A stretch of 64,000 nucleotides of DNA from Saccharomycopsis phalli (taxonomy: Eukaryota > Ascomycota > Saccharomycetes > Ascoideales > Saccharomycopsidaceae). The first letter of the stretch is position 1. Each line of letters begins with the position of its first letter. This document shows positions 13,991 through 37,363 of the stretch, piece by piece. Location: positions 288,501-352,500 of the forward strand of contig CP073213.1 in the NCBI GenBank assembly GCA_020342235.1, in the 5' to 3' direction. The position numbers were made by a program, and so were the translations under genes. The notes beneath the pieces were generated by a model. That model had not been told where the DNA came from. It was given only the letters and a program-made list of their open reading frames with translations, and did not search any database.

Positions 13991-14244
13991 TTTGAAATCT
14001 TAGTCAATTGTCTGAGACATGCCTAATATGCACACTTTTTAACATGGTAACTTCTCAAGGGACAAACTAGTGCAATTAAACAATTGAAATCAACATGAAA
14101 TTTACTCTACTAGAAAAGTACTTGCCCCTTTTATACTCTAAAAGTGTATTTGTCATTGTCAATTCACCAATGAGGATGTGAACTAATCCAACACACCACC
14201 AGATACCACTGACACCCTGGAACGGGCTGTATTCAACTTTGTAG

Positions 14245-14254
14245 TATATAAGAG
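14245..14254 (+). promoter_or_regulatory. TATA box of secreted peptide copy 1
   Basis: TATATAAGAG, about 38-47 bp before the ATG, conserved identically in the paralogue at 35920-35929. Confidence 0.7.
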
Positions 14255-14291
14255 ACACTGTTCTCAACTTTCAACATCAAACAACTCAACA

Positions 14292-14696
14292 ATGCAATTC
14301 CAAACTCTCTTTACCATCTCCTCTATTGTTTTAGCTGCTGCTGCCGCACCTACTGGTGAAACTACTACTTTGGCTCCATCATTGAGCCAAGCTGTCACTG
14401 CGACTTCATTGGACCAAGTGGCTACTGAAGTTCCTGTCGACTCCTCTGCTCCTGTCGACTCCTCTGCTCCTGTCGACTCCTCTGCTCCTGTCGACTCCTC
14501 TGCTCCTGTCGACTTCTCTGCTCCTGTTAACTCATCTGTTCCTGTCGACACACAAGGCTCTGACGATGTTCAAGAAAAGAAATGGAGAAGTATATTCAAG
14601 ACCATTGGTACATTTTTTGGAATAGCTTCGGATGCTACAAGTGCAGCTTCTAATATTTATAATATGGCAAACCCGAATAAAGGAAATGGTAATTAG
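14292..14696 (+). CDS. Small secreted repeat peptide precursor, copy 1
   Basis: A 134-residue protein of unrecognised family. It has a clear signal peptide (MQFQTLFTISSIVLAAAAAP, cleavage probably in the Ala run), a Thr/Ser-rich pro-region and six tandem six-residue units of the PVDSSA type (about residues 55-90). After VDTQGSDD comes a lysine-containing boundary (EKKWRS). The C-terminal 35-40 residues begin with a cationic amphipathic stretch (SIFKTIGTFFGIASD) and end in NKGNGN. It lacks cysteines and a GPI signal, so it is probably secreted. The layout (leader, spacer, basic junction, amphipathic C-terminus) resembles processed secreted peptides in general, but I know no homologue and assign no function. 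Its twin lies at 35967-36371. Confidence 0.75.
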   Translation: MQFQTLFTISSIVLAAAAAPTGETTTLAPSLSQAVTATSLDQVATEVPVDSSAPVDSSAPVDSSAPVDSSAPVDFSAPVNSSVPVDTQGSDDVQEKKWRSIFKTIGTFFGIASDATSAASNIYNMANPNKGNGN

Positions 14697-14919
14697 GCTT
14701 TATAACCAATGCTGCTGGCTGGCATGGATATACGAATAGATATACAGTATAACTGTAAGCTGTAGTTAGATGTACCTTGGCTTCAAAAGACTTGAATTGG
14801 ACACTTGAGAAAATCCCAAGGCAGCTGTTAAAAATTACTATTATTCTCTCTTAGCTGTCTGGGATTAATAATTTAATGGGAATTGTTTAGATTATGATTC
14901 ATAGTGCATTGTGTGGGTA

Positions 14920-15065
14920 GGTGAGAAGCCTGCCGATCGAATCTCATAATGTGTTGGATGCGGCATGCTCCATTACATTCTGGTAGAAATCAATGAGTGG
15001 ATTTACTAGTGATTGGCAAACACTTTTCAAGTATGCTGTTTATTCCGCTAGCTGGAAGATCTAGT
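14920..15065 (-). pseudogene. Short relic of coding family C
   Basis: ATCTCATAATGTGTTGGATG, TTGGCAAACACTTTTCAAGT and TTATTCCGCTAGCTGGAAGA match the family-C pattern at 26290-26420 at low identity. Confidence 0.4.
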
Positions 15066-16337
15066 GCCAATTTCTTGTCATAATCTGACGTTTCTTTCAA
15101 TGGCTTCCATATCTTACTGTTGTAGATATTCTTATTCTTGTTACTATACTAGCTATTTCTTATCCTATTTATATTCTTTTCTGAGATGCCTTCAGTTGCC
15201 TTCGGCTTCTGAGATGGATTTGAAAGTGATTAATGAATGGTTTATTGGAATTTTACGGAAACTACGCGATTGTGGCTTTATTTGGACAGTCGATTTTTAC
15301 CAGTTTTACATGGTCTAAATGTCCTTGTGGGGATTGATCAAGTACCTTGTTTTTTTGCTGAAAATAATCAACAACGTGGACTTTGTCTTTTTAAAATCTT
15401 TTTCAGGATCCCAAATTCCATATCTTTAATGTCACTAACGTGTTTCTGTCGTGGTTAACAACCACTGCAGAACATTACCGACTCCCGGTGTTGATAAGAC
15501 TGAATACTCCAATTCCAGTTATATTGGAATTAATATTATTGGAAGATAATAATCTGACAAGATATGGAGAAAGTCTATATGAGGGGGGCTTCCCTTCTTA
15601 TAGAAAACACAATTCAACTGAACAGTTCAGCTAGACATTATATCTAACAGAGTCCAATCCGGTTATCCAAATCCTAAAGGAACAAAACAAATGATTAAGT
15701 AGTTTATAGTTCATTATAATACTATGAAATCAGACGAAACTATTAACTACGACAGTTTCTCTAGCGTATGTGACGTATGTTCAACTTTTCGGCACCTTCA
15801 GAGTGGCTCAGCTAGTAAAGAATATTATTATTCATTCTTTTTATCGTGAACAATTGCTCTATTGAGACAGTTGGATGAAGATGACGAGTCCACTTTAATA
15901 TCATGGCGAAAATAATTACATAAAGAGACAGTTTTTATACTCAATCTATCCAGGATTTCATAGCCTAGCTGGATTATTAAGTGACTTCCATGTGTCAATG
16001 AGTCCCGTGCTCTGTCACTCTGCATAAGATATTATTGGTCCAGATATGTAAAATTCAAAATCAAATGGTAGGATGTCAATTTATTGATGTACATGTGGTG
16101 AATCGAAAGAAGGTGGTTCACTGTTTTTGACAAGCAAGGTGTTTTATCTATTAAGCCAGGTATCAGCAGAATAGAAATAACCTACGGCTTCATTGGTGGA
16201 CATGCAATGTGAACATTCCATGTCTCACTTGGATGAATTAAAATATTGAGACGCTTTTTACAAGGTAAAATAGGGCAGCTTGATTTATATTTAGCAAACA
16301 AAGGAAAAATAATAAGCAAATTGCTCCTGACTATTGG

Positions 16338-17110
16338 TATAAAAGTTTTTTTGATACTACTGGCAAGATGAAAGTACGCTACTTACTATCATTCTGGTGC
16401 CTTGCATGGCTTCTGGCTCCATAATTGAGCGAGAAAACGTCAATGGTGACATGGAGTTTCTGTAGAGTTTATTGTTTAACCCACCGAGTTTGAATTCCTT
16501 GGTTGACACTGGATGTGGATTTTTCTCGCATTGTGAGAGGACTTGTGTCTATGGAGAATATGTGAGTGATATGGTACATGTGTTTGGCAGTGAAGTCAAA
16601 GGTGCGGTTTTGGAATAATCTATAAATGTGGCAATATAAACATTTTCGGTGGTGATTCTCGAACGCTGGAGACGTCTGCCATGAGAGTGGCGAAGTTTTG
16701 TTGCCATGAGAGTAGCTAAGTGTTGTCTGCTGTACAATAATTTTCCTTGCAAATCATGGGAGTAGCTAAGTTTTATCTGCTATACGATAATTTTCCTCGT
16801 AAAATATGGGCTTTTGGTATTATTGAGAATCACACTTGCTATTAATGTGACTTTTGCCATAAAATATGGTGATGATTATGTGGCAATTGTCCCTGATGTA
16901 TACTATGTTGATATTGGGTAAACTCAGCTGGGTTTTGCACAAACTATTTCTAGTTTGATATTTTGGCAATTTTCAGACCATTTCTGAGTGGGAGGGAGGG
17001 CTGTGTGAAGTGTGATGAAATGAGCAAGGCGTTGATTTTTTTTTTGGTTGTGGGAATTCTGTAATGGGGATATGTTTTTTGACAATGCCTAGACGTGAAT
17101 GGTATTGTAT
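16338..17110 (+). pseudogene. Decayed secreted aspartyl-protease-like gene, copy 1
   Basis: TATAAAAG (16338-16345) precedes an ATG at 16368 that opens a signal-peptide-like MKVRYLLSFWCLAWLLAP and then a stop. Further on, one frame reads SLVDTGCGFF, close to the pepsin-family active-site pattern, followed by Cys-rich CERTCVYG. A 16880-17110 block (GCAATTGTCCCTGATGTATA, TTTGATATTTTGGCAATTTT, TTTTTTGACAATGCCTA) is shared with 32295-32530. I infer two diverged copies of a dead secreted protease gene. The evidence is short motifs and shared layout, so this is tentative. Confidence 0.45.
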
Positions 17111-17204
17111 AATTACAATGCTTCTGGTATTTTAATGCTTCTGGTATTTTTCATTGGCAAAACAACGGCTGGCTGGGTTTGGGTAATGTCCTTGTCCATT
17201 TTAT

Positions 17205-17390
17205 CATAATAGTAATATTTATTTATGTATTTAGCTATATATTGTCTCCGGCATTACGGTTATTTGACAGATATATCTTCACTCAGGAACATCAGGCACC
17301 ATTGCTGAAAACCCACAACTCTCAAATAGTCGTCTCGGATTAAACTTCAATGGGAGCAGTCATATTGTTGGTACTTAGTGCTCCATTTTA
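17205..17390 (-). mobile_element. Family-A SINE-like retroposon copy
   Basis: Plus-strand order: ATAGTAATATTTATTTATGT, GCTATATATTGTCTCCGGCA, CACTCAGGAACATCAGGCAC, AACTTCAATGGGAGCAGTCA. Lies directly after the decayed protease block, as does the copy at 32610-33045. Confidence 0.75.
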
Positions 17391-17534
17391 TCATGATCAT
17401 GGGTTTCAAGTATGGGCATGATATGTGGTGAAGGATGGTTAGCCAAGGTTGACTTTTCAATAATATATCTGCAACAGGTTTTGGTGGGATAATAGAGATG
17501 GACATGGTATTGTTTTTTGGTGAATCAACTTATT

Positions 17535-17665
17535 CTATGTAGTGGAATTTAGTCCATGTAGTGTAGTGGAACTTAGTCCATGTAGTGTAGTGGAACTTAG
17601 TCCATGTAGTGTAGTGGAACTTAGTCCATGTAGTGTAGTGGAACTTATTCTATGTAGTGTAGTGG
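17535..17665. repeat. 24-bp minisatellite
   Basis: About five units of GTAGTGTAGTGGAACTTAGT plus CCAT. Confidence 0.85.
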
Positions 17666-17784
17666 CTAGGATACGAGTTGGTAAATGGATGAAATATGTT
17701 TGTTTGACTATTCAGAGGAAGGGCGAGTTCTGAAAAGTATAGAGTTGGAAGTATACAATTCTAATAGTATAAAGCTCTAAAAGT

Positions 17785-17992
17785 ATACAACACTATACAC
17801 TATACACTACACTATACACTATACACTACACTATACACTATACACTACACTATACACTATACACTACACTATACACTATACACTACACTATACACTATAC
17901 ACTACACTATACACTATACACTACACTATACACTATACACTACACTATACACTATACACTACACTATACACTATACACTACACTATACAACA
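17785..17992. repeat. 19-bp minisatellite of CACTATA motifs
   Basis: About ten very regular units of TACACTATACACTATACAC. The high regularity suggests recent expansion. It lies about 130 bp past the stop of MCA1. Confidence 0.9.
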
Positions 17993-18124
17993 GTACAGTC
18001 ATGACTGGGCTAAACCACCTTGACAGATTAGAATCAGCGGATGGCATGAAAAAACGGTCCCGATTCATGCTACCGACTTGCCGGCAGAATCTACAAGCAG
18101 TTGCAAACATACATTTATTCATTT

Positions 18125-19510
18125 CTACAACACAAACTGGAGCTCAGTGTTGAGCGGGTGAGACGCAGACAATTGCGGTTTCTGGCTGTACTTGCCCGAC
18201 AATTGCGAGCGCATATTGTTCAATAACGAGATATAACTCTGCACCGGCTGGCGCTCCAACACTGTGCGGAACGCATACGACATGGCACCGGTGGCCGAGC
18301 CGTCGATATTGGCGTCGGCAGACGTCTGGTCGTCTTTACATCCGGAGATGGAGACCACGTCGGCAGCGGACATTTTCATCTTGGTGATTCTGTCGCGCTG
18401 GTCCTTGGACTTGTTGCGCGAGACCTTGTCGAAGATGCTGGTGACGGACAGAACTGTCTGCTGGATGTTGCCCGAGGCATATGCGGTGAACGCCTGGATA
18501 CCTTCCATGCCGATGTTCTTCAACAAGTTTGGCTCCTTGACCACGCCCTTGGTGGAGTAGACAAACGGCAAGTCGAGCGCGGTTCCCGAGTGGCAGGAGT
18601 CGTACAATGCGGTGAGACGGCATCCTGGAGGAAGCGGCTTGACCATGATGTCGTGCATCAAGTCGTCGATGATGACGCCGTTCTGCTTGAAATCGGTCGG
18701 GTATATTGTGCTGTCGAACCCGTCCTCCTCGTCGCCGTCCTCATCCTCCTGCACCCCTCCATGTCCCGACCAGTGGAAGAAGAGCGAGTCGTTTGGCTGG
18801 GCGTCCTTGACCAACCACTTCATGCCGCGGATGATGTTTTCCTTGGTTGGAACCCGCGCAGCCACGGTCTGGTCGTCGGTGAGCACCACAATGTCCTGTT
18901 CCTTGTACCCGTACCGCTCGGTGATGAACTTCTTCATGTTGGCCACATCGTTGATGCACCCTCGGAGCTCGATCCGCGGGCCTTGGCCTCGGTAGTTGCA
19001 CCCCATGAGCAACGCCTTCTTGCGGCCAGAACAGTTGGAGTACTTGAATGTCATGTTGCTGTTGCCGCCAAAACTCTGCGCCTGGGTAGGAAGGTCCTTT
19101 GGCCGCTGGTACGTGATCGTCTGCCCGGTGTTTGGATTCGTGTAGCTGTACTGCCCACTATGGAGATTCTGTTGCGCCGCCACGCCTGGCGGTGGTCCCG
19201 CGGGCCGCTGGTATTCCCGCTGGGCCACTCCTGGTGGCGGTCCAGACGGCGGGCCGTAGTGGTTCTCCTGGATGCCTCTGGAGCCCGGCGGAGGACCCAG
19301 TGGCGGGCCGTATCCATTGCCAGGAGGGCCTGGTGGCGCGCCATAGGTTGGTGCACCATAGTTTGGAGCTCCTGGTGGAGCTCCTGGTGGAGCGCCATAG
19401 GTTGGCGCGCCATATCCATAGCCCTGGCCATAATTCGGAGGGACTGGCGGTCCGCCGTAACCGCCTCCGTATGGAGGTTGGCCATAACCGTTGTTTTGCC
19501 CTGGGTACAT
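18125..19510 (-). CDS. MCA1: Metacaspase
   Basis: Cysteine protease of the caspase-hemoglobinase fold, Arg/Lys-specific and calcium-activated, linked in yeast to stress, ageing and aggregate clearance. The product is 461 residues (S. cerevisiae Mca1 432). The N-terminal prodomain (about 1-150) is a Gly/Pro/Tyr-rich repeat of the PYGAPPG type and has little glutamine. The protease domain starts at KKALLMGCNYRGQG (about 164). The catalytic His is 250 in FHWSGHGG and Cys 306 in YDSCHSG, both intact. Acidic DEDGDEEDG follows the His block as in the family. The start is the first ATG, about 47 bp downstream of a TATATA element. The reversed prodomain gives a long antisense frame that is not a gene. 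Confidence 0.96.
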   Translation of the reverse strand: MYPGQNNGYGQPPYGGGYGGPPVPPNYGQGYGYGAPTYGAPPGAPPGAPNYGAPTYGAPPGPPGNGYGPPLGPPPGSRGIQENHYGPPSGPPPGVAQREYQRPAGPPPGVAAQQNLHSGQYSYTNPNTGQTITYQRPKDLPTQAQSFGGNSNMTFKYSNCSGRKKALLMGCNYRGQGPRIELRGCINDVANMKKFITERYGYKEQDIVVLTDDQTVAARVPTKENIIRGMKWLVKDAQPNDSLFFHWSGHGGVQEDEDGDEEDGFDSTIYPTDFKQNGVIIDDLMHDIMVKPLPPGCRLTALYDSCHSGTALDLPFVYSTKGVVKEPNLLKNIGMEGIQAFTAYASGNIQQTVLSVTSIFDKVSRNKSKDQRDRITKMKMSAADVVSISGCKDDQTSADANIDGSATGAMSYAFRTVLERQPVQSYISLLNNMRSQLSGKYSQKPQLSASHPLNTELQFVL

Positions 19511-19556
19511 CTTGTATAACGAGACTGATGAAATCTATCCGAGACGTGGACTCGAG

Positions 19557-19564
19557 TTATATAC
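19557..19564 (-). promoter_or_regulatory. TATA box of MCA1
   Basis: GTATATAA on the minus strand, about 47 bp upstream of the ATG. Confidence 0.5.
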
Positions 19565-20077
19565 CCGGTGCACGGATGTGGTAATGATATATGCGGATAC
19601 GCGCATGCTGCCGCGTGGCTGTGACAATTTTAAGGTACGGCACATGTAGTGAGTGGTGGTAGTATAGTGATGGTATTGTAATAGTGTAGTAATAGAATTG
19701 TAACAATCAATCAACGTTGTTTGAACCGTGATTCAAAAGCTTGTGGATTGTATATTCTGGCATCGATGCAACTGGTATTCCATGCCAATGCTAATTCTTC
19801 GCAGGCGCAGATCCATCGCTTTGGACCAAGGACCAGGGCAACGTTTTGCGGTAGAGGTCATATTTCATGGCAATGTAGGAGGTATTGGCAACATGACGCT
19901 GCAAAGTGACCTGGGTGGAGTCATCTATATAGCGACACTGTAAACAAGCATCAGAATGATTAGCCCAGCCTTGTAAACTAGGCCAAGTCACAGAATTCCA
20001 CAACCATTGAAACTTTCACATCAAAACTTTCACATCAAAACTTTCACAACTTTACAGTCTGCAACTCGAGAAACTAT

Positions 20078-20218
20078 AATAATAATATTTATTTTTGTAT
20101 TTAGCTATATATTGTCTCCGGCATTACGGTTATTTGACAGATATATCTTCACTCAGGAACATCAGGCAGCATTGCTGTTGAAGAAACCCTTTGTCAACTC
20201 TCACCATTAAACTAGATC
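20078..20218 (-). mobile_element. Family-A SINE-like retroposon copy
   Basis: Plus-strand order: ATAATAATATTTATTTTTGT, GCTATATATTGTCTCCGGCA, CACTCAGGAACATCAGGCAG, then AAACCCTTTGTCAACTCTCA. 5'-truncated. Confidence 0.75.
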
Positions 20219-20329
20219 CAAGGCCTATCAAGCCATGTCTCAACGTTCAAGACATGGCTTGAAAACTCATGGTATCATCTTAAAAACTTTCATGTCCAAC
20301 TGACGATATTCTCCTACAAACTATAGTTG

Positions 20330-20560
20330 TACTATAATAATATTTATACAAGGCTATAGCGATACTACATCCGAAGCAGTGAAATATCAATCTCTTCGGA
20401 GCCTAGTATAGCTATAGACCATAAATAAAAATAATAATACTACATCCTAGAGGAGATGTATACCTTGCCGTCCAAGACCAAGGATGGTGCTGCTATGTAG
20501 TCATCGAAAGAAAAATCTGCGACAGATTACTTTTGACTAGTGCTTGTAAATATATAAGGT
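20330..20560 (-). mobile_element. Family-B copy interrupted by another family-B copy
   Basis: AATATTTATACAAGGCTATAGCGATACTACATCC is resumed after the insert by TAGAGGAGATGTATACCTTG, CCGTCCAAGACCAAGGATGG and GTAGTCATCGAAAGAAAAAT. Removing the insert and one target repeat restores the normal family-B order. Confidence 0.75.
20373..20436 (+). mobile_element. 64-bp 5'-truncated family-B insertion with target-site duplication
   Basis: Contains GTGAAATATCAATCTCTTCG and GAGCCTAGTATAGCTATAG plus an AT-rich tail, in orientation opposite to its host element. Flanked by direct repeats ATACTACATCC at 20362-20372 and 20437-20447. Confidence 0.8.
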
Positions 20561-20574
20561 AATGAGCATTGGAG

Positions 20575-20710
20575 GGCAATATAGCTATACTACATCCCAG
20601 TAAAGACTTATCTGACCGTCTACGACAATGAGCCGCGCCGCTCTTATCCGTCAAAGAACCCTGCATCAGGGACAAACTTGCAACTGGTGCTGTAAATAAT
20701 ACATATTGTC
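20575..20710 (-). mobile_element. Second family-B copy in tandem
   Basis: ATATAGCTATACTACATCCC, CCGTCTACGACAATGAGCCG and GTCAAAGAACCCTGC follow the same order as the neighbouring copy at lower identity. Confidence 0.6.
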
Positions 20711-20799
20711 GTTGGCTATATTGTCTGACATATAGTTTGTCAAGTCCATGTCTCCAGGAAAATCCCAAGCAGCTCCATAGGACTGAGCCTCAATTAATC

Positions 20800-20935
20800 A
20801 GTAGTCAATTAATCAGTATTGTTAATTAACTAGTGTTGTCAATTAACCAATATTTTCAATTAACCAATATTTTCAATTAACCAATATTTTTAATTAACCA
20901 ATATTTTCAATTAACCAATATTTTCAATTCTAGCT
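20800..20935. repeat. 17-bp minisatellite
   Basis: About seven units of TCAATTAACCAATATTT, starting from diverged TCAATTAATCAGTA units. Confidence 0.85.
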
Positions 20936-20984
20936 TTGTAGTCTCGTGCAAGAACTTCATACCTTTGCCTACATGTTTGCTCAA

Positions 20985-21150
20985 TCTCATGTGCTGAGGA
21001 TCATGCTCCAACACGCTCTATAAACTCGTCTGGTTATCGCGAATTTCTCGTCGGAAAACACCGTTTTACCATGTCACATATTCCATAGATCTATTTCATC
21101 AATTTGTAATACAATCCAAGCTCCAGGTGCTCTAAACAGTTCAATTCCAT
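20985..21150 (-). pseudogene. Relic of coding family C
   Basis: ATCTCATGTGCTGAGGATCA, TGCTCCAACACGCTCTATAA, ATTTCTCGTCGGAAAACACC, CATATTCCATAGATC and TTTCATCAATTTGTAATACA match the relic at 26290-26420 in order. Confidence 0.6.
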
Positions 21151-22084
21151 TGACCCAGTCGGCACAATCCTAATCATACCTCTGACCTATCTTGCTTTCA
21201 AAAAGTACACTAGAGGAGTTTGCTCAAGTAGAACATAATATTAAAGTGCATTTACACCTGTGCAAATTATTCACGGCACGGTAGTACAATCTCAGGGAAT
21301 GGCAAAACATGTCTCAAATCTTGATTCAACTGTATTCACCTGGCGTATTTGCCAGCAACCTGTCGTCCTGGTTGGCTCTACAATTGCCAATGGCAATAGA
21401 AATTACCCAATACACTCATGAAATCTCCTTGGAGTCAACACCATTAAAGGCCAATTACGCATCTCTGTTAATGTGCTGATCAGTTTACCAAGGTGAACCC
21501 ACAACCACCGCGAGCCAGAATTCTTTTAAAATAGTTGAATAAACTAGCATCATAAGCAGCATTTTTAAAAGAGTGTTTGTTTGCAAATCAATCTATACAC
21601 TGTTTTACAGCACAAGGGACTTGATACCCCAACATGTGATCCATCAAATTTGTCAGACAACCGGGCTTGTCTATACGGTCCAGACATGGTAATAAATGTC
21701 AAATATAAGCTCCAGTCTCCAAAGAGATTGCCCATATCCGTGGCTCGATATTATTATTCTTTTGCTATAAACAGAAGTATCATTCCCATCTAACAGAATA
21801 CACGTCTACTTCTGCAATGGTTAGTCTATTTATTAGTCTAGCCATGACAGGCTGACATCTGGCACATGCGGAACAATCCATTTGACATATTCTGAATGGA
21901 TAGTGGGGAGTCATTGGTCTGATATTATAATCTTGTGTAGTGAGTAAATATACGATGTCGTGATGACCAGGTCAAACGGTGGGCATTGGAGGTTTACTAT
22001 TTTACTCCAAGGTTAAACTCAAGTAGGTCTATTATTTTCTCCATCTGGTTAAAACTCTAGGTGCCATTCATGTATATTAGTAAT

Positions 22085-22350
22085 GAAAGCTATACAAGAG
22101 ATTATTTTATTAGTAATGAAAGCTATACAAGAGATTATTTTATTAGTAAATGAAAGCTATACAAGGGATCATTTTATTAGTAAATGAAAGCTATACAAGG
22201 GATCATTTTCTATTGTAGTGGATAGAGAATTAACATCACTGATATTAATCCAATCATACTTACAATCCAAAATTCTTAATCTAACATTCTTAATCTAACA
22301 TTCTTAATCCAACATTCTTAATCTAACATGCCTAATCCAACATTGGCCAA
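22085..22350. repeat. Two minisatellites
   Basis: Four units of about 37 bp (TTAGTAATGAAAGCTATACA plus an AGAGATTATTTTA tail) at 22085-22215, then about six 14-bp units (ATTCTTAATCTAAC) at 22265-22345. Confidence 0.8.
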
Positions 22351-22392
22351 CCATTTGACTCGTCTCCAAGGTTAATCACTCATCCTCGCCAT

Positions 22393-24315: not shown

Positions 24316-24340
24316 CGTTGGTTTTCTCCAGGATACCCGT

Positions 24341-25169: not shown

Positions 25170-25310
25170 ATCCTATTATTTCATATTATCATTATCATAT
25201 TATCATTATCATATTATCATATTATCATATTATCATATTATCATATTATCATATTATCATTATCATTATCATATTATCATATTATCATCATATTATCATC
25301 ATCATATCCA
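25170..25310. repeat. ATTATC/ATATTATC microsatellite
   Basis: Uninterrupted TATCAT/TATTATCAT units for about 140 bp. Confidence 0.9.
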
Positions 25311-25559
25311 TCCTTATCCTTCCTTATCCATTCTTGTCCAACCTTATCCAACCTTGTCCTTCCTATCACGTACACTGCATAGCTGAAACACCCCTATTCA
25401 AGATTCACCTGCAAGTTCCATATCCACCTTATTGGTTATCTTTTCCACTGGCTTGCTTTCTCATGGCCAATATCTACAAATAGTCACCGAATATTGTAAC
25501 CATTGGCACAGTACAATGTCCTCCTAATTTTTTATCATCTCATGTCCTCCTAATTTTTT

Positions 25560-26605: not shown

Positions 26606-26914
26606 AGTTTATGAGTCCAGCACCACCCATCCATTATCAAATTTGCCAATATAGCTCGTGAGCTATTCCATGACAGTATGAAATTAATAAATTCATAAAA
26701 CTGCTATTCAGAGGCGTGAGATACCACGATTGATTTTATGGCTCGTGTTTGATGTAGCTGCATCATGTCTTAGATGCATACATTGTGGTCTGGTAACCGT
26801 ACTCACGAGACAATAAAGTCTGTCTGACAATTGGAAATTGGCTTGGTAATTACTTCACCAGAAAAATACTATACCTGCACCAGAAAAATATACCTTTGTC
26901 TCGGAAGAATGTAA

Positions 26915-27265
26915 TTAAAAACTCTCTTTACCATCTTTTCTATTGATTCAACTGCTGCTGCCGTTCCTTTTGGCGAAACCACCACTTTGGTTTCTTTAAT
27001 TTTGAACCAAACTGCTACTGTTGTTTCTGCTGCTCCTGCAAACTCACAATACTCTGACAATGACCAATGAAAAATGGACTAGTATAATCAAGAATGCCGA
27101 TACCGTTGCTGGAATCGCTGGAATCTTACTGGCATAGCTGCTAATGGTGTTAAAATGGCCAATGCGGGTGATGAAAAGAGTGATCTGACTTTATAATTAA
27201 TGCTGCTAGTTGGCATTAATATATGAATGGATTTATAATATTATTGTAAGCAGTAGATGAACCAT
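26915..27265 (+). pseudogene. Fossil third copy of the secreted peptide locus
   Basis: Matches the two intact copies from the leader region (AAACTCTCTTTACCATCT) through the pro-region to the 3' flank (TTTATAATTAATGCTGCTAG and TTGGCATTAATATATGAATG). The PVDSSA-type repeat array is absent. It is clearly broken with several breaks and older than the split of the two intact copies. Confidence 0.7.
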
Positions 27266-27269
27266 GGGC

Positions 27270-27530: not shown

Positions 27531-27624
27531 TTTTTGGGTATTTAGCAGATTAAATACAATCTGTTATATGTCGTGGTTCAGCCGTTTACCGACTGAATCC
27601 GTAGATACTAAACATACCTGATCA

Positions 27625-28255: not shown

Positions 28256-28545
28256 TCAACAGCTGCCCGAATTGAGGTTTTGACCCACAATTGTGTTTTC
28301 CCAAATTGAAGTTTTGATCCATAATTATGTTCTGATTGGATTGAGGTTTTGACCCACAACTGTATATTTTCCCAAATTGAAGTTTTGACCTACAATTATG
28401 TTCTGCCCAAATTGAGGTTTTGATCCACAATCATGTTCTGATCGAATCAAAGTTTTGACCCACAATTATGTTCTGCCCAAATTGAAGTTTTGATCCACAA
28501 TCATGTTCTGATCGAATCAAAGTTTTGACCCACAATTATATATTC
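28255..28545. repeat. Long-unit minisatellite (about 40-50 bp)
   Basis: Alternating units AAATTGAAGTTTTGATCCAC and GAATCAAAGTTTTGACCCAC with AATTATGTTCTG spacers, about seven units. Confidence 0.8.
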
Positions 28546-28564
28546 TGCCCACATGTCTTACATA

Positions 28565-28685
28565 TTTTTCATGTCGCAGAGTTCTTTCGACAACTACATG
28601 ACAGCACCGTCCTTTGTCTTGGACGGCAGAGTATAAATCTCATGTGAAAGCCTAGTATAGCCTTGTATAAATATTATTCTCATCA
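28565..28685 (+). mobile_element. Family-B retroposon copy close to the ASI-like promoter
   Basis: CGCAGAGTTCTTTCGACAAC, CACCGTCCTTTGTCTTGGAC, AGAGTATAAATCTCATGTGA and GCCTAGTATAGCC, then TATAAATATTATT. It ends about 90 bp before the gene start. Confidence 0.7.
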
Positions 28686-28771
28686 GCACCACCTTCTCTC
28701 ATTCACCATCTTATATCATCTCCGTCAACCGGGTAACCTGCCTTAAAGCCCAGGCCGCACTCCACTCCTAC

Positions 28772-30829
28772 ATGTCACTCATCCTCAAAACCAACGTCTC
28801 CAACACACAACCAGCACTATTCTCAAATGATACACTTGTGCCGGCGGTGCTTGTGCTGCTCGTCAATTCAGTCATCACCCAGTCCCACGAGTCGCACCTC
28901 CCGCCGCGAAATCTCCACAGCTACTTGAACTACCTTGTTTCCCCATATGCCTCGGTGTGTATGCTCATGGCCATTATATTGAACCGCACAATCTTCATTG
29001 CGTCCTCGGAGCCCGCGGGACGCCGTCCGCCCGCCCATGTCCACACCTGGTCCCAGAGACTCGCCGAGATTTTCAAGTACCCACGCTGGCTCAAAGTCGA
29101 CTTGCGCAACATTGCGATACTCGTGTTGCTCAACGATATCCGGATCATCTTGATCTCGCTCAACTGCTACTCGCAAGTCGCACACCGTTTCTTGTCCAAG
29201 GTCTCGCTCTTCAACTACCAGCCAAATATGTTTCTGTCCAGTGCCTATCTCCATCCAGTGAGGCACAACACCACCACTGTACACAACATGTACAATGGCA
29301 CGCTTCTCATTGGCAAGGGTGGCAATTTGTCGCCGCCAGATGCCAATTTCGGGCTTGTCGGCCCATCCACTGATTTGTTATGGCCATTGTACTTGTCCCT
29401 TTGCTTCAGCCAGTTCATCGAGACATTGTGCTCGGTGACCTCGGGCATCCAGCCCAGCATCGAGTCCTCCATAACGTTGTTTGAGCTCTCGATTGCCTTT
29501 TACGAGTTCAACAACATGTCCAGCGACTTTGCAACCCCGTCGCCCGAGTTGCTCGCCCTCTGCTTATACTCAGTCGCAGGCCACTTGTCCATCCACTTGC
29601 TCAAAGTCTCCAACAACATGCACCACCGACTCAAAGTCTCCAGTGCCATTGGCGGCTCGTTTCTCGCGTATTTCATCTATAGCTTCGTCCGTGGCCGCAT
29701 ATACTACTTCCCAGGCATCGTGGTGGTGTCATGTCTTCCTGTTGTCTCCATATTGGCCATCATTTGCATCTCCAGCAGCATCTATTTGGCAGCAACCATC
29801 TTGCACGAGTCCCACTTGACGTTTGAAAACATCGGCATCGACAACTTGAACGTGAACCCATCCGACGACTTCAATGTCGCCTTGATCGAACTAAGCGTAC
29901 TTGCTCTTGCCAGCGTCTCCAAGAAATCATACATCAAGGAGTTGGCCAACATCCAACTCCCACAATCCACATGGTTCGAGTCCGAGCTTCGGAAATTGTC
30001 CCTGGCCCAATCCAGCGTCGTTCCTGGCAATTCCCGTGGCTCTCGTCCAGGATACAACCACCAGATTGAGCTTCCTGTTGACTATGTCGATTTCCACGAC
30101 CCTCAGCCCCAGGACCTGGATGGTGCTTGGATGGTGGCCACGCGGTTCTCAAGAGCCAAAACCGTGGCCAGAGTGTTTTTCAGCTTCGTCTACAGCTACT
30201 TCTTCAGACGGAGACAGATTCAGCTGTTGCTCCGCAAGAACCAGTTGCTTCTGTCCCGGACCCGTGCCGCCGAGTCATTTGATTTATACAATGGCGAGAA
30301 GTTGGACTACCCACGGTTCTTGCGCGGTCCTCTTATCTCTGAAGAAGATGACTCCTCGGATTTCGAGCAATGGGACCTGGCCTCGGACCTGGGCGACGAA
30401 ATTCAGCAAGAAGAATCCCAAAACAGCCCAGACAATCTGGAATCCGCATTGCTAGAGATTGTCGGGTCGCAAGATCTCTTTTCAATACTAACCAGCAACA
30501 ACGACGAACAAGAGATTCTCAGACTGCACTTGGCACGGCCAGACTCCCGTCGCGTGACCAGATCGCAGTACTTGCTTGAGAGCAACGAGTTTAACAAGTT
30601 TGGAAATTTGTTGCTGGCTGCCAGAAGCAATAATCCCAGTGCCAGTGAGTATGCTAAGCAATACAATTGCGTAATCTGCCAAACCGATCCTCGGCAAATC
30701 GTCTTGTGGCCGTGCCGTTGCTTGGCGTTGTGTGACAGTTGTCGATTATCTTTGGTGTTGCGTGGTTTCAAGTCGTGTGTCTGTTGTCGCAGGGACATTG
30801 AGGGGTATAGTAAGGTGTATATGCCGTGA
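28772..30829 (+). CDS. Asi1/Asi3-like RING ubiquitin ligase of the inner nuclear membrane
   Basis: In S. cerevisiae the Asi complex (Asi1, Asi2, Asi3) sits in the inner nuclear membrane, ubiquitinates mislocalised membrane proteins and keeps Stp1/Stp2 amino-acid-response factors silent. The product is 685 residues (Asi1 624, Asi3 676). The N-terminal half has several hydrophobic segments (for example near 25-40, 55-80, 110-130, 260-280 and 295-355). The middle is acidic and Ser-rich. A C-terminal RING with the Asi-type CVIC (about 632), LWPCRCLALCDSCR and SCVCCRRDI spacing is followed by GYSKVYMP, which closely resembles the Asi family ending. I cannot tell Asi1 from Asi3; a single ancestral-type gene is likely. 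Confidence 0.85.
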   Translation: MSLILKTNVSNTQPALFSNDTLVPAVLVLLVNSVITQSHESHLPPRNLHSYLNYLVSPYASVCMLMAIILNRTIFIASSEPAGRRPPAHVHTWSQRLAEIFKYPRWLKVDLRNIAILVLLNDIRIILISLNCYSQVAHRFLSKVSLFNYQPNMFLSSAYLHPVRHNTTTVHNMYNGTLLIGKGGNLSPPDANFGLVGPSTDLLWPLYLSLCFSQFIETLCSVTSGIQPSIESSITLFELSIAFYEFNNMSSDFATPSPELLALCLYSVAGHLSIHLLKVSNNMHHRLKVSSAIGGSFLAYFIYSFVRGRIYYFPGIVVVSCLPVVSILAIICISSSIYLAATILHESHLTFENIGIDNLNVNPSDDFNVALIELSVLALASVSKKSYIKELANIQLPQSTWFESELRKLSLAQSSVVPGNSRGSRPGYNHQIELPVDYVDFHDPQPQDLDGAWMVATRFSRAKTVARVFFSFVYSYFFRRRQIQLLLRKNQLLLSRTRAAESFDLYNGEKLDYPRFLRGPLISEEDDSSDFEQWDLASDLGDEIQQEESQNSPDNLESALLEIVGSQDLFSILTSNNDEQEILRLHLARPDSRRVTRSQYLLESNEFNKFGNLLLAARSNNPSASEYAKQYNCVICQTDPRQIVLWPCRCLALCDSCRLSLVLRGFKSCVCCRRDIEGYSKVYMP

Positions 30830-30869
30830 TGGTGAAACAATGGTGTGTGGGATTACCTGGGAGATGGAG

Positions 30870-31012
30870 ATGGAGATATGATGAATATATGATGAATATA
30901 TGATGAAAATACTATGAAAATACTATGAAAATACTATGAAAATACTATGAAAATACTATGAAAATACTATGAAAATACTATGAAAATACTATGAAAATAC
31001 TATGGAGATAAA
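30870..31012. repeat. 11-bp minisatellite
   Basis: About ten perfect units of CTATGAAAATA after a few GATGAATATAT units. Starts 40 bp past the ASI-like stop. Confidence 0.9.
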
Positions 31013-31759
31013 ATACCATAAATGCACAACAGCTTACGTACACAAACCACCACTGAAGATTGAATTCTCCATCCGTTTGCAATTCACATCCTACCTCCAA
31101 GTAGTCTAGTTGGTACAGAATTACTGTCAGTTGCTCTTAAAGTTTCCTAGTGTATATAACTAAAATGAATATCTAATCATTTCATTGTACTGCGACACCA
31201 CAAAAGCTCATTTGCCAGTTTGACAACCACCTCTTTCTATTCTAGCCTAGCTCACTAGATGCAATTGTAAACCAGTGCCATTGACATATCTTTAGGTCAT
31301 CTAGAGAACAAAAGGTATGCTCTTATGCCGAATCATCCTGGCAGTATGCTATTTCTAATAGTGGTGGATTAGGAATTGACTACATCAAAAATAGCCCATG
31401 TTGCAAAATCAAAGTTGTCACCAATGATACATCTTTGAAAATAAAGTCATCTCAGATTCCATTGGTAGATTTGTACATGGGTCACAGTTTACGCAAGCTA
31501 GTTCCACCCATTGGTTTGCCAATGCCATGAGACAATGAATATTAAATTTATAAAATCACTGGGAGTTTTAAAGGTACAAATATAGTAATCCATTGCCTTT
31601 AAAAACCTAATACAAATGGCAAGGCATGATTCGTTGTGAAACTCCAGCGCATAAATAATAACAATCATACAATAGCCAATCCACTACTGTATTCTGAATC
31701 TATAGATGACAACTCCGTTCCTACCGACTGACTTGACATGTGCCTAGCTGCTGGGTAGT

Positions 31760-32530
31760 TTGTCTAGTAAACTAAACAGAATATTCCATGTCTCACTTTG
31801 ATTAATCAGAATAGCGCAACGCATTTTGCAACGTGCAGAAAGACAGCTTAACTTGAAATCTAATGAGAAAAAATATCAAGTGAACTGCTTATAATTATTG
31901 GAATAAAGATTCCTTCGGAAAACTTATATACCAATGGTTGAAATTGTCTTTGAGAAGCACTTTGGTACAAACGACGTGCTGCTCCTAGACATCTCATATA
32001 CAAGTATTGGTTGGCGCAGTCTAGTGAAGAATGTCAAAAATAGGTTCCTCAAAATTCCTACGAATATTCAGTCGCAATAATCTGTGGACAGTGACAATAG
32101 AACTCGGAAACCAAGGCTTCACCACCAGACTTGGAATTGACTCTGGTGAATCGGGTATGCTTGCTTGGTCATCATTTGCTTTTGAGGTGCAGTGCAGACA
32201 TGTCAAAGGTTGATAGAGACACCGTCGCAGTTTCTTTCATTACTGGAGACGACAATAAAGAGATGTTTTTACAAAATTTAGTATTAATTATAGTGGTAAT
32301 TCTGTGGCAATTGTCCCTGATGTATACTATGTTGGTACTGGGTACACCCTGTTTGGTTTTCCACGAAATATTTCTAGATTGATATTTTGGCAATTTTCAA
32401 ACCATTTCTTGGTGTGAGGACTGTATAAAGTGTGATAGAATGGCCAAGGCACTGATTATTTTAGCTTAGATTCCGATAGTTTACTGGCTGTGCCAATGGG
32501 GACATGTTTTTTGACAATGCCTATACATGT
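31760..32530 (+). pseudogene. Decayed secreted aspartyl-protease-like gene, copy 2
   Basis: Alignable with 16190-17110 in order (ATTCCATGTCTCACTT, then GCAATTGTCCCTGATGTATA and TTTTTTGACAATGCCTA). A frame at 32031-32213 reads LWTVTIELGNQGF then RLGIDSGESGMLAW, which fits the N-terminal lobe of pepsin-type proteases around the DTGSS active site, here DSGES. A following VSFITGDDN resembles the flap-region YGDGS block. No continuous gene remains. The family assignment rests on these motifs only. Confidence 0.5.
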
Positions 32531-32609
32531 TTTGATCTTGAGAATCAGCTTTACTGTTGGCAAGCCAATGGCAAATTCTGGAGGGTCGAATTTTAAGAAT
32601 GATATTTTG

Positions 32610-33045
32610 TATTTAGCCATGTATTGTCACCGGATACACGACTATTTGACAACACGATGAGACTCAGCGGTGACATTCGACAACAAAAGTGACCAGGCTT
32701 CTTACACAATCAACACAAGCACCAAGTACCAACAATATGACTGCTCCCATTGAAGTTTTTAATCCCAAACAATCGAATGAGGATTGACAAAGGGTTTTCT
32801 TCAACAGCAATGCTGCCTGATGTTCCTGAGTGAAAATATATCTGTCAAATAACCGTAATGCCGGAGACAATATATAGCTAAATACAATTACAAATATTAT
32901 TATTATTATTATTATTATTACTATTTCACAAGTGTATTTTCACTCAGGGACATTCTGAGGCAGCATTGCTAACCCACATGACTCAAACATCTGCCTATGA
33001 TTAGACTTCAATTTGAGCGGTTTTATTGTGGGCTTTTTCCTGGTT
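32610..33045 (-). mobile_element. Family-A retroposon split by a second family-A insertion
   Basis: The left part (32610-32652, TTGTATTTAGCCATGTATTG) and right part (32932-33045, GTGTATTTTCACTCAGGGAC, GAGGCAGCATTGCTAACCC) are contiguous in other copies. The interruption is the element at 32653-32919. Confidence 0.75.
32653..32919 (+). mobile_element. 267-bp family-A insertion inside an opposite-strand family-A copy
   Basis: Starts CACGATGAGACTCAGCGG and ends with GCCGGAGACAATATATAGCT and a long (ATT)n tail. Flanked by ACTATTTGACAA (32641-32652) and ACTATTTCACAA (32920-32931), a 12-bp target-site duplication with one mismatch. 5'-truncated relative to the copy at 13522. Confidence 0.82.
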
Positions 33046-33360
33046 GGCAAGTACTATTTCAAGAAGAATTCTACTATTTTAAGAAAAGTCTGACTATTCA
33101 AGAAAAGTCTGACTATTCAAGAAAAGTCTGACTATTTATACATGAGAAGAGTGCTCTTTGTTAATGCGGCTAGACCATAATCGTTGAAACTAGTTTGAAT
33201 CAGCCAAATGGCATCGGAAAGTAAATCTTCATTACAAGCCACTGGCTACAGCTGTACTATAATATGTATTGACAGAGCTGTGGTATACCATGTAATCCTA
33301 AATCAGCAGACCCTATTCGCCCAGCACACGGGTATATCCATGCTCTATCCGCTATTTGGA

Positions 33361-34581
33361 CTATATGTCGTCGGACCAAATACTAGTGCCATTTGCCTCG
33401 ACGTACCCCGACAAACGGTCGACGTTGCCGCTCCAGCTGGCCAACTTTTCGCTCATTGCCTGGATCTGCGGCATGTTCATGACCCGAGGCTGGACCCAAG
33501 AGACACTGACAGTCTGGTTAATCTGGTCAATATACCCTTTGATTAGGCCGATGCTGAGGGCACGCATGACCAAGAACTCGATCTCGTTAATCGGCGTGAG
33601 AGTGTTGCTGCTGATTTCGCCAAAGGTGATGACACGCTTGCCATTTGGCTTGGCGATGATGGACTCTGTCAAGGACATGAGGCAGATTTTCTGCTTCAAG
33701 AAGTGGATATTCTGCTGGAGTAGCGGCGACTTTGCTTGGATCGCGGGGATCGACTTATCGTGGAACTGCTTCAAGTCCCCCTGGTTGAGGTAGAAGAGCA
33801 AGTCGCGTAGCCAGCCATATTCGGACTTCAATGCGTCTAGGATCTCGTGCAACAACAACTCGCCAAAGTTGTAGATGTCGTCGCCCAACAATGCGGCGAT
33901 GCTGAGGTCGTACGCCACCTTGGTCTTTTCCTGGGTGTCGATTGAGTCCAATGATGACAAGTACAACAACGAGTTGCGGTAAAAGTTATTGTAGTCATGC
34001 TTCAACTTGTAGTACTCGGCATTTGTTGAGTAGTACGCCGCGTTGATGCGACGGTTTGTCCGAGCAAGCCCATCGATCTTGGCCCAGCTGTCGGCCAAGA
34101 TCCGCTCACTGGCCTCAAAATCGTTCAAGTATAAGTTCAACCGAGCAACAGCAATGTCCAAGTAGATCGACGCCTCGATCTTGTCGTCTGTCTGATTGTA
34201 CGACTCGTGCAAGTTCACGCCAAACCCGCCCTTTGTGTCCTCGTCGCTCGGCAACTGCTTCTTCAACCCCGCCTGGATCTCCTGCAAATACCGCAATTTC
34301 TCGTGGTTGTCTGCAATTTCCTCCACAGAGACAAGCAAAAAGTGCACGAACTTCAACTGGTTGAGCTTCTTCTGGAACTTCATGATAAAGTCCTTGAACA
34401 ACCGCATCCGCATACCCTTGGACTGGGGGTCCACATAAAACTCCTCCAAGCTCTGGGTCAACTGATGCCACAACTTCCGCTCATATAAATCCTCAAAGGT
34501 ATAGTACAAGCCGCTGAGCTCCTCATTTGTATCGAGCCTCAATTGGCTGAGCGTCTCGTGCATATAATCATCCACGTCCAT
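33361..34581 (-). CDS. RPN9: 26S proteasome regulatory subunit Rpn9 (PSMD13)
   Basis: PCI-domain subunit of the proteasome lid, needed for lid assembly and efficient degradation of ubiquitinated proteins. The first ATG in frame is at 34581 (MDVDDYMHETLSQL), giving 406 residues (S. cerevisiae Rpn9 393). Codons further upstream in the frame start with TTG and are not used. TPR-like helical repeats (ARLNLYLNDFEASERILADS, then AYYSTNAEYYKLKHDYNNFY) precede a C-terminal PCI winged helix (about 260-385). That part contains ITFGEISSNT and LVMRALSIGLIKGYIDQ, followed by WVQPRVM. This matches Rpn9 rather than Rpn5/6/7. The promoter side carries a family-A retroposon about 90 bp upstream. Confidence 0.93.
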   Translation of the reverse strand: MDVDDYMHETLSQLRLDTNEELSGLYYTFEDLYERKLWHQLTQSLEEFYVDPQSKGMRMRLFKDFIMKFQKKLNQLKFVHFLLVSVEEIADNHEKLRYLQEIQAGLKKQLPSDEDTKGGFGVNLHESYNQTDDKIEASIYLDIAVARLNLYLNDFEASERILADSWAKIDGLARTNRRINAAYYSTNAEYYKLKHDYNNFYRNSLLYLSSLDSIDTQEKTKVAYDLSIAALLGDDIYNFGELLLHEILDALKSEYGWLRDLLFYLNQGDLKQFHDKSIPAIQAKSPLLQQNIHFLKQKICLMSLTESIIAKPNGKRVITFGEISSNTLTPINEIEFLVMRALSIGLIKGYIDQINQTVSVSWVQPRVMNMPQIQAMSEKLASWSGNVDRLSGYVEANGTSIWSDDI

Positions 34582-34667
34582 GGTTGGTGGCGACTTGTTT
34601 GAAAATTCCAATCACTATACGGTCACGTGACCACGCCCGTAGCCATGTATATTGACTTGTCTTGAAC

Positions 34668-34815
34668 TAGATATTGTCTCCGGAAACACGGTGATTTGAC
34701 AAGTATATTTTCACCCAGCAACATCCTGAGGCAGCATTTGGTTGAATAAAACCCTTTATAACCCTAATCGGTTATATGGGCTGAAAAACTTTAATGGGTG
34801 CAGTGTTGATTGAAC
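34668..34815 (-). mobile_element. Family-A retroposon in the RPN9 promoter
   Basis: Plus-strand order: AGATATTGTCTCCGGAAACA, TTTGACAAGTATATTTTCAC, GAGGCAGCATTTGG, AACCCTTTATAACCCTAATC, GGCTGAAAAACTTTAATGGG. Begins about 90 bp upstream of the RPN9 start codon. Confidence 0.7.
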
Positions 34816-35919
34816 TCTTGATTCCCAAGTAATCGAATGGGTGCTGCCAATTTGTACCGAATATTCGACTCAAACGGTTTGTGATGTAGCTGCCAATTGT
34901 TGGCTCAATTTGCTGTTGAAATGCAACTGTCAAGTATTGTGCATGTACTTTGCCTTTGGTTATTATATTTCGCGTCAGTGTATCAGCTTTTCTAGATGGC
35001 ATGGACTTAATCATGACTTGAACTACAATCCTAGATAAATGACATGCTGAATGAATTGGTAGCTCTCTATCAACAACACATTCTATCAACAAAGCATCTC
35101 TGAAAATACAGGACATACCAACCATTTGGCACTAGATTCCAGCACACCATACCTTAGTTACTCCTGCCAAAAGACTCGCAAGAAATTCTTGTCCTCTAGA
35201 TTGTGTATCTGCCATTTCACTTCTTCCCTAGGAATTGGTACATGCCAATATCTCAGAGAAATTACCTTTGATACAAACAATGTATTTTCTTTTAAACGTA
35301 AAACTTTATACTCAATTAGCTACACATTTAATCGTTTGCAACCAGTCATTACACCAAAACTACACTTTCCAACGGTTCAGTTCCATGGTACACATTTCCA
35401 AAACGACCCAAGCTACCGTCAGTATTCGAAAAATTAATCATTTGAATAAGTGATTACAGAATAATAAGGTGACTGAATAGTGTTTACACTAGAATAATTA
35501 TGAAAGTACCGCTATATTCGAGACATTGGCTGTTCTCCACTGAAATTCGACCTTGGTGTCGAAAATTAGTTCAGTATCCAGCCCTCATGAAAGGTAATAA
35601 GACTGAAAATATTAATTTTACATTACTGTTATATGGAGGCACCATAAATCCAGTGAGACATGGTCGTTGAAATCTTAGCCAATTGTCTGAGACATGCCTA
35701 ATATGCACACTTTTTAACATGGTAACTTCTCAAGGGACAAGCTAGTGCAATTAAACAATTGAAATCAACATGAAATTTACTCTACTAGAAAATTACTTGC
35801 CCCTTTTATACTCTAAAAGTGTATTTGTCATTGTCAATTCACCAATGAGGATGTGAACTAATCCAACACACCACCAGATACCACTGACACCCTGGAACGG
35901 GCTGTATTCAACTTTGTAG

Positions 35920-35929
35920 TATATAAGAG
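35920..35929 (+). promoter_or_regulatory. TATA box of secreted peptide copy 2
   Basis: TATATAAGAG, identical in sequence and distance to the start codon to that of copy 1. Confidence 0.7.
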
Positions 35930-35966
35930 ACACTGTTCTCAACTTTCAACATCAAACAACTCAACA

Positions 35967-36371
35967 ATGCAATTCCAAACTCTCTTTACCATCTCCTCTA
36001 TTGTTTTAGCTGCTGCTGCCGCACCTACTGGTGAAACTACTACTTTGGCTCCATCATTGAGCCAAGCTGTCACTGCGACTTCATTGGACCAAGTGGCTAC
36101 TGAAGTTCCTGTCGACTCCTCTGCTCCTGTCGACTTCTCTGCTCCTGTCGACTTCTCTGCTCCTGTCGACTTCTCTGCTCCTGTCGACTTCTCTACTCCT
36201 GTTAACTCATCTGCTCCTGTCGACACACAAGGCTCTGACGATGTTCAACAAAAGGGATTGTTAAGTATATTCAAGAAAATTGGTAAATTTCTTGGATTAG
36301 TTTCGGATGCTTCAAGTGCAGCTTCTAATATTAAAAATATGGTAAACCCGGATCAAGGAAATGGTAATTAG
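35967..36371 (+). CDS. Small secreted repeat peptide precursor, copy 2
   Basis: 134 residues, the same length as copy 1. The leader (first 20 residues) and pro-region are identical, and the six repeat units differ mainly in having Phe (PVDFSA) where copy 1 has Ser. After VDTQGSDDVQ the C-terminal part changes: the junction is QKGLLS, the amphipathic stretch is SIFKKIGKFLGLVSD with more lysines, and the end is PDQGNGN. Roughly a third of the last 40 residues differ from copy 1, while some 290 bp of upstream DNA differ at only a few bases. Unrecognised family; probably secreted and proteolytically processed, which is inference. No nearby candidate immunity or processing gene is visible. Confidence 0.75.
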   Translation: MQFQTLFTISSIVLAAAAAPTGETTTLAPSLSQAVTATSLDQVATEVPVDSSAPVDFSAPVDFSAPVDFSAPVDFSTPVNSSAPVDTQGSDDVQQKGLLSIFKKIGKFLGLVSDASSAASNIKNMVNPDQGNGN

Positions 36372-37347: not shown

Positions 37348-37363
37348 TGATACAACACTGTCG

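What the first reader, a model, noticed from the sequence alone, without database searches (positions are those of the whole stretch)
14004..36371. Paralogous secreted peptide pair: frozen promoter and leader, fast-changing C-terminus
Copies at 14292-14696 and 35967-36371 have nearly identical upstream DNA (about 290 bp, a handful of differences), identical leaders and equal length. Yet about a third of the last 40 residues differ, mostly in the cationic amphipathic stretch (SIFKTIGTFFGIASD against SIFKKIGKFLGLVSD) and at the basic junction (EKKWRS against QKGLLS). Neutral drift after duplication should hit the promoter at least as hard. The pattern suggests diversifying selection on a processed C-terminal peptide, or gene conversion limited to the left part. 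I know no described family with this layout, so it is a candidate for a new secreted peptide system with unknown activity.
Basis: partly seen in the sequence, partly recalled or inferred. Interest (0 to 1): 0.8.

Follow-up and report, generated by a model that had tools for sequence, protein, structure and literature searches.

The report
Twin yeast secreted peptides, fast-changing tails
A budding yeast carries two intact copies and one dead copy of a small, probably secreted protein gene; DNA exchange between the copies seems to keep most of the gene nearly identical while the tail, predicted to form a helix, differs only in amino acids, which suggests selection on the tail, but its activity is untested.

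Summary
Genes A (14292-14696) and B (35967-36371) each encode 134 aa. They differ at 3 of 300 upstream bases, 0 of 150 bases in codons 1-50, 5 of 108 in the repeats and 18 of 120 in codons 95-134 (14 changed residues, no synonymous codon difference).

A degraded third copy lies at 26905-27256. Homology continues upstream of the 300 bp but is interrupted in A by a 469-bp SINE-like insertion with 13-bp flanking repeats. That outer flank differs at 7 of 67 bases. The first 44 bases after the stop codon are again identical. So the near-identity is best read as an ectopic gene-conversion tract, with a block of amino-acid changes inside it.

The two alternatives offered, conversion and selection, probably act together. 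The selection evidence is moderate: P of no synonymous codon about 0.015-0.09 depending on the mutation model, and a transversion excess (P 0.007). Neither copy has a KR/RR Kex2 site, so a processed peptide is unproven. The B tail alone is predicted as one amphipathic helix (pLDDT 84). No relative was found, but the collections searched are not of yeasts. A membrane-active peptide is my best guess, at moderate confidence.

The parts
14292..14696 (+). Gene A: 134-aa protein, probably secreted (signal-peptide-like start judged by eye, P/V/D/S/A repeat region, 40-residue tail)
   Evidence: ORF; differences from B
35967..36371 (+). Gene B: 134-aa paralogue of A
   Evidence: ORF
26905..27256 (+). 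Copy C: degraded third copy; the ATG is followed at once by a stop, the repeat array is absent, and matches to A lie in different frames
   Evidence: blastn segments of 81% (E 2e-14), 73% (E 0.4) and 79% (E 9e-8), sequence, repeat family D10, DNA alignment and tblastn pieces
14004..14291 (+). Upstream region of A, near-identical to B (part of the conversion tract); TATATAAG at 14245-14252 (by eye)
35679..35966 (+). Upstream region of B, counterpart of 14004-14291
14442..14549 (+). 18-bp repeat array in A (units DSSAPV x4, DFSAPV, NSSVPV)
36117..36224 (+). 18-bp repeat array in B (DSSAPV, DFSAPV x3, DFSTPV, NSSAPV)
14574..14693 (+). Variable tail of A (codons 95-134)
   Evidence: 18 of 120 bases and 14 of 40 residues differ from B
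36249..36368 (+). Variable tail of B (codons 95-134), predicted as one long amphipathic helix when folded alone
14697..14740 (+). 44 bases after the stop of A, identical to B (right part of the conversion tract)
36372..36415 (+). 44 bases after the stop of B, identical to A
13442..13508 (+). Outer left flank of the duplication in A (7 of 67 differences from 35599-35665)
35599..35665 (+). Outer left flank of the duplication in B
13522..13990 (+). SINE-like insertion upstream of A: tRNA-like head, A/T-rich tail, 13-bp direct repeats 13509-13521 and 13991-14003
   Evidence: no Rfam match up to E 1
35666..35678 (+). Matching empty site in B (a single copy of the target sequence, one base different)

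Best explanation
A and B are old duplicates of a gene for a small, cysteine-free, probably secreted protein. An ectopic gene-conversion event, probably recent, made them nearly identical from the SINE-like insertion upstream of A (left end within 13509-14004) to about 44 bases past the stop codon. The tail (codons 95-134) stayed or became different because selection favours different tails: its codon differences are all amino-acid changes, while net charge and amphipathic character are the same in both. The most likely role of the tail is a membrane-active amphipathic helix (antimicrobial, killer-like or lytic), carried by a signal peptide and a disordered P/V/D/S/A spacer, with two copies of different specificity. 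Shown: the copies, the divergence profile, the flanks, the insertion and its empty site, the absence of synonymous codon differences. Inferred: conversion, selection. Guess: secretion, cleavage and membrane activity.
For: Step in divergence: outer left 7 of 67, inner 8 of 582 (p 0.0003); the distal 3' side is hardly alignable (38 of 96 mismatches plus 50 gap columns), so the duplication is older than the 1% suggests. Synonymous sites of codons 1-94 frozen too, 0 of 74. 342-bp identical run (permutation p 5e-5 under a uniform rate). C differs from A by 22% in the leader (20 of 92) and 30% in the 3' part (26 of 87), so neither is intrinsically frozen. Tail: no synonymous codon difference (P about 0.015-0.09), transversion excess p 0.007, 18 of 96 non-synonymous sites against flanks 12 of 154 (p 0.015). 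Net charge of the 40-residue tail is +3 in both (5 K/R, 2 D/E); hydrophobic moment of residues 100-114 exceeds shuffles (p 0.015 A, 0.011 B). The tail of B alone is predicted as one helix over residues 96-126 (mean pLDDT 84).
Against: Tail divergence (15%) is not above the outer left flank (10%, p 0.50) and only marginally above both flanks together (p 0.078). Over residues 97-126 the moment of B is only borderline against shuffles (p 0.052, A 0.006). In random non-synonymous simulations the amphipathic moment and the net charge of the real tail are not unusual (P 0.12-0.34 and 0.16-0.17). No KR or RR site in either copy. Full-length model pLDDT 51. The right tract border was chosen after seeing the data. 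Only two intact sequences, no relatives, no expression data, and no signal-peptide predictor was available.
Confidence: 0.4

Rival explanations
1. Left-limited conversion only: promoter, leader and repeats were homogenised up to about codon 94, and the tail simply keeps old, nearly neutral divergence under relaxed constraint. No diversifying selection.
For: Tail divergence is similar to the outer left flank (p 0.50) and the inner left part is clearly homogenised. The no-synonymous result alone is only P 0.04-0.09 at kappa 0.5-2.
Against: The 44 bases after the stop are identical and about 24 synonymous tail sites unchanged; joint P 0.017 to 0.0002 for neutral divergence of 6-12%. Transversion excess in the tail, p 0.007. 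Reading frame kept in both.
Confidence: 0.27
2. Cassette exchange: the tail of one copy was replaced by a short conversion from another, more diverged family member elsewhere in the genome. B is the candidate recipient.
For: Sharp block of change between identical sequence on both sides; with C as outgroup 9 derived tail sites in B, 2 in A, 6 where all three differ (p 0.065); a different substitution spectrum.
Against: No donor in the window (blastn and tblastn); a donor at that distance should also carry synonymous changes, and none is seen. The alignment to C is uncertain in the tail.
Confidence: 0.15
3. A secreted or wall-associated structural protein whose tail helix binds a partner or self-assembles; tails differ by subfunctionalisation, not by a toxic or antimicrobial role.
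For: P/V/D/S/A repeats match the DUF963 repeat model (42.9 and 33.4 bits, cut-off 21); no Kex2 KR/RR site.
Against: Cationic amphipathic tail and no cysteine; by eye no GPI-type hydrophobic C-terminus (not tested by a program).
Confidence: 0.25

Closest known systems
Frog skin antimicrobial peptide precursors (temporin, brevinin)
   Same: Conserved signal peptide, pro-part, hypervariable C-terminal mature domain under positive selection, amphipathic helix (PMC7106915, passages seen)
   Different: No homology shown; here only two intact copies, no KR/RR site, P/V/D/S/A repeats instead of an acidic propiece
Ece1 / candidalysin of Candida albicans
   Same: Budding-yeast precursor that carries a helical membrane peptide (works-like comparison only)
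   Different: Ece1 is 271 aa with seven KR motifs that Kex2 cuts (PMC5784256, passages seen); here 134 aa, no KR/RR, the helix is at the very C-terminus
Kex2-processed repeat proteins (KEPs)
   Same: Signal-peptide-like start plus tandem repeats
   Different: KEP repeats are separated by Kex2 sites (PMC7329392, passages seen); here no K or R occurs before residue 96
K1-like killer toxin family (KKT)
   Same: Yeast secreted paralogues; [quoted passage not shown]
   Different: Those rely on cysteines and disulfides (PMC7888664, passages seen); here no cysteine

Membership tests
Ece1 / candidalysin | Several KR motifs flanking peptides | tested here: not met
   The only dibasic pairs are KK at 96-97 in A and KK at 103-104 in B
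Ece1 / candidalysin | Amphipathic helical peptide | tested here: met
   Moments 0.50 and 0.55 for residues 96-113; tail helix of B pLDDT 84. Analogy only, no sequence comparison with Ece1 was made
Kex2-processed repeat proteins | Repeats separated by Kex2 sites | tested here: not met
   No K/R in residues 1-95 of A or B
Yeast alpha-factor precursors | Pfam MF_alpha or MF_alpha_N match | tested here: not met
   Pfam scan gave only DUF963 above its cut-off for A and B
K1-like killer toxins | Conserved cysteines and disulfides | tested here: not met
   0 Cys in both
DUF963 repeat (PF06131) | Repeat score above gathering cut-off | tested here: met
   42.9 bits (A) and 33.4 bits (B) against 21, in the repeat region only; a low-complexity match that says nothing of the tail
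Layout of conserved leader with hypervariable tail (frog AMP type) | Non-synonymous excess confined to the C-terminal domain | tested here: inconclusive
   14 non-synonymous and 0 synonymous codon differences in the tail, 5 non-synonymous in the repeats; P 0.015-0.09 by model for the tail
Layout of conserved leader with hypervariable tail (frog AMP type) | Membrane or antimicrobial activity of the released tail | not testable with these tools
   Needs bench work
SINE (insertion upstream of A) | Pol III-type head, target-site duplication, several copies | tested here: inconclusive
   tRNA-like head by ARAGORN at a relaxed threshold but no Rfam match; 13-bp direct repeats and empty site; other copies share only the 3' part

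The most novel reading that the evidence does not exclude
A budding-yeast family of secreted antimicrobial or killer-like amphipathic peptides whose promoter, leader and 3' end are repeatedly homogenised by gene conversion while selection keeps pushing the short active tails apart, a yeast counterpart of frog-skin peptide genes.
Probability: 0.25. Interest if true: 0.65.

Novelty: new variant of a known kind. Interest (0 to 1): 0.42.

Why it matters
If right, it is a compact natural case in which conversion and diversifying selection oppose each other within about 750 bp, with a marker of order (a SINE-like insertion in one copy and its empty site in the other) and a dead copy as outgroup. It would also add genome-encoded amphipathic peptides to the secreted arsenal of budding yeasts, with two ready variants for comparison. 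If the tail turns out neutral, it remains a clean example of partial ectopic conversion.

Tried and rejected
Whole-genome search: no genome is held for the window. Relatives: tblastn of B in the plasmid collection gave only weak partial matches below 40% identity in 5 records. Pattern scans of viral contigs (60 candidate stretches) and genome contigs (27) confirmed no relative. None of these collections is of yeasts, so absence there means little. NCBIfam (bacterial and archaeal models): 0 hits. PDB by sequence: best E 0.3 for full-length B and 0.15 for its tail. Full-length AlphaFold model too poor for a fold search (pLDDT 51); no fold search was run, since a lone helix would match anything.

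Rejected: purifying selection alone as the cause of the frozen left part, because synonymous sites are frozen too and the outer flank is not. Rejected: classical Kex2 release at the 'basic junction', for lack of KR/RR. I considered reading charge and amphipathicity as proof of selection, but random simulations reach them too often. In some tests I used a right flank of 33 bases (14741-14773) that ends at the last difference and so slightly inflates it; over 40 bases it is 5 of 40. Bacterial-type promoter and terminator scan: not applicable to yeast and uninformative.

Literature: ten searches listed no paper that by title or shown abstract describes this family. The library is open-access PMC only, and text searches cannot use sequence. 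Five papers were seen as passages only.
Full report
What is there. Two open reading frames of 134 aa lie on the + strand 21,675 bp apart: A at 14292-14696 and B at 35967-36371. Each begins with a signal-peptide-like stretch (by eye; no predictor was available), followed up to about residue 50 by a part without charged clusters, six 18-bp repeat units (DSSAPV/DFSAPV type) and a 40-residue tail. The neighbouring genes are those of a budding yeast as I judge them: Spt5 and Rpn9 orthologues, a metacaspase, and a GLEYA adhesin with Candida_ALS repeats. CTG may be read as serine: in Spt5 codon 793 and metacaspase codon 71 a CTG stands where neighbouring repeats have serine (by eye). The other CTG codons that I looked at did not settle it. 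A and B contain no CTG.

Divergence profile. A and B differ at 3 of 300 bases upstream, 0 of 150 in codons 1-50, 5 of 108 in the repeats, 0 of 24 in codons 87-94, 18 of 120 in codons 95-134 and 5 of 87 on the 3' side. In the 3' part all five differences lie at or beyond 14741; the 44 bases after the stop are identical. Beyond 14780 homology fades, with 38 of 96 aligned bases different and 50 gap columns. All 19 changed codons are amino-acid changes; four tail codons changed twice, and codon 104 could hide one synonymous step. Leaving out the repeat array, 18 of 20 differences in 14005-14740 fall in one 107-bp window (p 5e-5).

First, a third copy C at 26905-27256, same strand, between A and B: 81% identical over 86 bases of the leader, 79% over 68 bases of the 3' part, with a weak middle match (73%, E 0.4), no repeat array, a stop right after the ATG, and matches in different frames. 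I take it as a pseudogene and use it as outgroup. Second, the upstream homology does not end at 300 bp. In A it is broken by a 469-bp insertion, 13522-13990, flanked by a 13-bp direct repeat (13509-13521 and 13991-14003), and resumes at 13442-13508, matching 35599-35665. B has the single-copy empty site. The insertion has a tRNA-like head (ARAGORN at a relaxed threshold; not called at the default; no Rfam match up to E 1). Its 3' part matches nine other places in the window as I group them, plus two short further matches near 32.6 and 32.95 kb; all these matches lie in bases 295-467 of the insertion. So it looks like a SINE with 5'-truncated relatives. The empty site in B implies that it entered A after the duplication.

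Conversion. The outer left flank differs at 7 of 67 bases, the inner stretch 13992-14573 at 8 of 582 (p 0.0003). Synonymous sites of codons 1-94 are also frozen: 0 of 74 against 12 of 100 in the outer flanks (p 0.0014; the right flank used there was 33 bases ending at a difference, and over 40 bases it is 5 of 40). C differs from A by 22% in the leader (20 of 92) and 30% in the 3' part (26 of 87), so these parts are free to change over time. The simplest reading is recent ectopic conversion whose left end falls at the insertion. The right end may lie at about codon 94, or about 44 bases past the stop. The second is favoured because 44 non-coding and about 24 synonymous tail sites show no change (joint P 0.017 to 0.0002 for neutral divergence of 6-12%), but that border was drawn after seeing the data.

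Selection on the tail. For: no synonymous codon difference with 18 base changes (simulated P 0.04-0.09 at kappa 0.5-2; 0.015-0.03 at kappa 4-8); 18 of 96 non-synonymous sites against 12 of 154 in flanks (p 0.015); 6 transitions to 12 transversions against 13 to 3 in non-coding DNA (p 0.007); tail against 3' flank p 0.044. With C as outgroup 9 derived sites fall in B and 2 in A (p 0.065). Against: total divergence of the tail is no higher than the outer left flank (p 0.50) and marginal against both flanks (p 0.078); unchanged synonymous tail sites, 0 of 24, do not differ significantly from flanks (p 0.37). With two sequences this is moderate evidence, not proof.

What the tail could do. Both tails carry 5 basic and 2 acidic residues although the basic residues sit at different places (A: 96, 97, 99, 103, 130; B: 96, 103, 104, 107, 123). 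On a helical wheel the four basic residues before 110 lie within one arc of about 160 degrees in A and 100 in B (no random control for this). Moments exceed shuffles for residues 100-114 (p 0.015 in A, 0.011 in B) and for 97-126 in A (0.006) but only borderline in B (0.052). AlphaFold gives one helix for the B tail alone (residues 96-126, pLDDT 84); the full-length model is poor. Random non-synonymous changes keep moment and charge fairly often (P 0.12-0.34 and 0.16-0.17), so these traits do not prove function. A membrane-active peptide is my best guess. Release is unclear: neither protein has KR or RR; before the helix A has KK and a lone R, B a lone K.

Known systems. The layout resembles frog skin peptide precursors (PMC7106915, passages). 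It fails defining features of Ece1 (seven KR motifs; PMC5784256, passages), of Kex2-processed repeat proteins (PMC6339444 and PMC7329392, passages) and of K1-like killer toxins (cysteines; PMC7888664, passages). No Pfam family above its cut-off covers the tail. No relative was found in the collections at hand, which are not of yeasts.

Verdict. Observation confirmed; interpretation partly supported. It is a real three-copy family with a conversion tract and a tail that probably is under diversifying selection; its activity is open.

Noticed in passing
13522-13990, with matches to its 3' part near 6992-7025, 7206-7357, 11112-11265, 17211-17360, 20085-20192, 32740-32886, 34647-34808, 37302-37339, 52477-52553: SINE-like retroposon family in a budding yeast: tRNA-like head in the full-length copy, A/T-rich (often ATT) tail, other copies lacking the head; shared flanking words of 12-13 bp at three of ten copies examined, only 6-9 bp at the other seven. 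Two paper searches showed no SINE family of budding yeasts by title or abstract start (12 of 85 listed; 7 of 7).
   Followed up: partly
37362-37692, with tail matches at 4264-4339, 5603-5657, 6301-6371, 20379-20429, 52769-52830: Second SINE-like element with a different tRNA-like head (ARAGORN relaxed: tRNA-Glu-like) and an apparent flanking repeat AACACTGTCG (by eye).
   Followed up: partly
6103-6221: Borderline Rfam 5S rRNA match (38.2 bits, cut-off 38) just upstream of a second-family tail at 6301-6371; possibly a 5S-headed SINE.
   Followed up: no
7481-10207 and 18125-19510: CTG codons in repeats of Spt5 (codon 793) and metacaspase (codon 71) stand where sister repeats have serine, suggesting CTG = Ser (by eye).
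   Followed up: partly
17514-17689, 17746-18030, 20805-20929, 25173-25318, 28269-28549, 30848-31023: Many short tandem arrays (units of about 8-36 bp) between genes.
   Followed up: no
14442-14549 and 36117-36224: Repeat units differ mainly by one C/T change (DSSAPV or DFSAPV): four S-units in A, one in B, as expected of unit turnover.
   Followed up: partly
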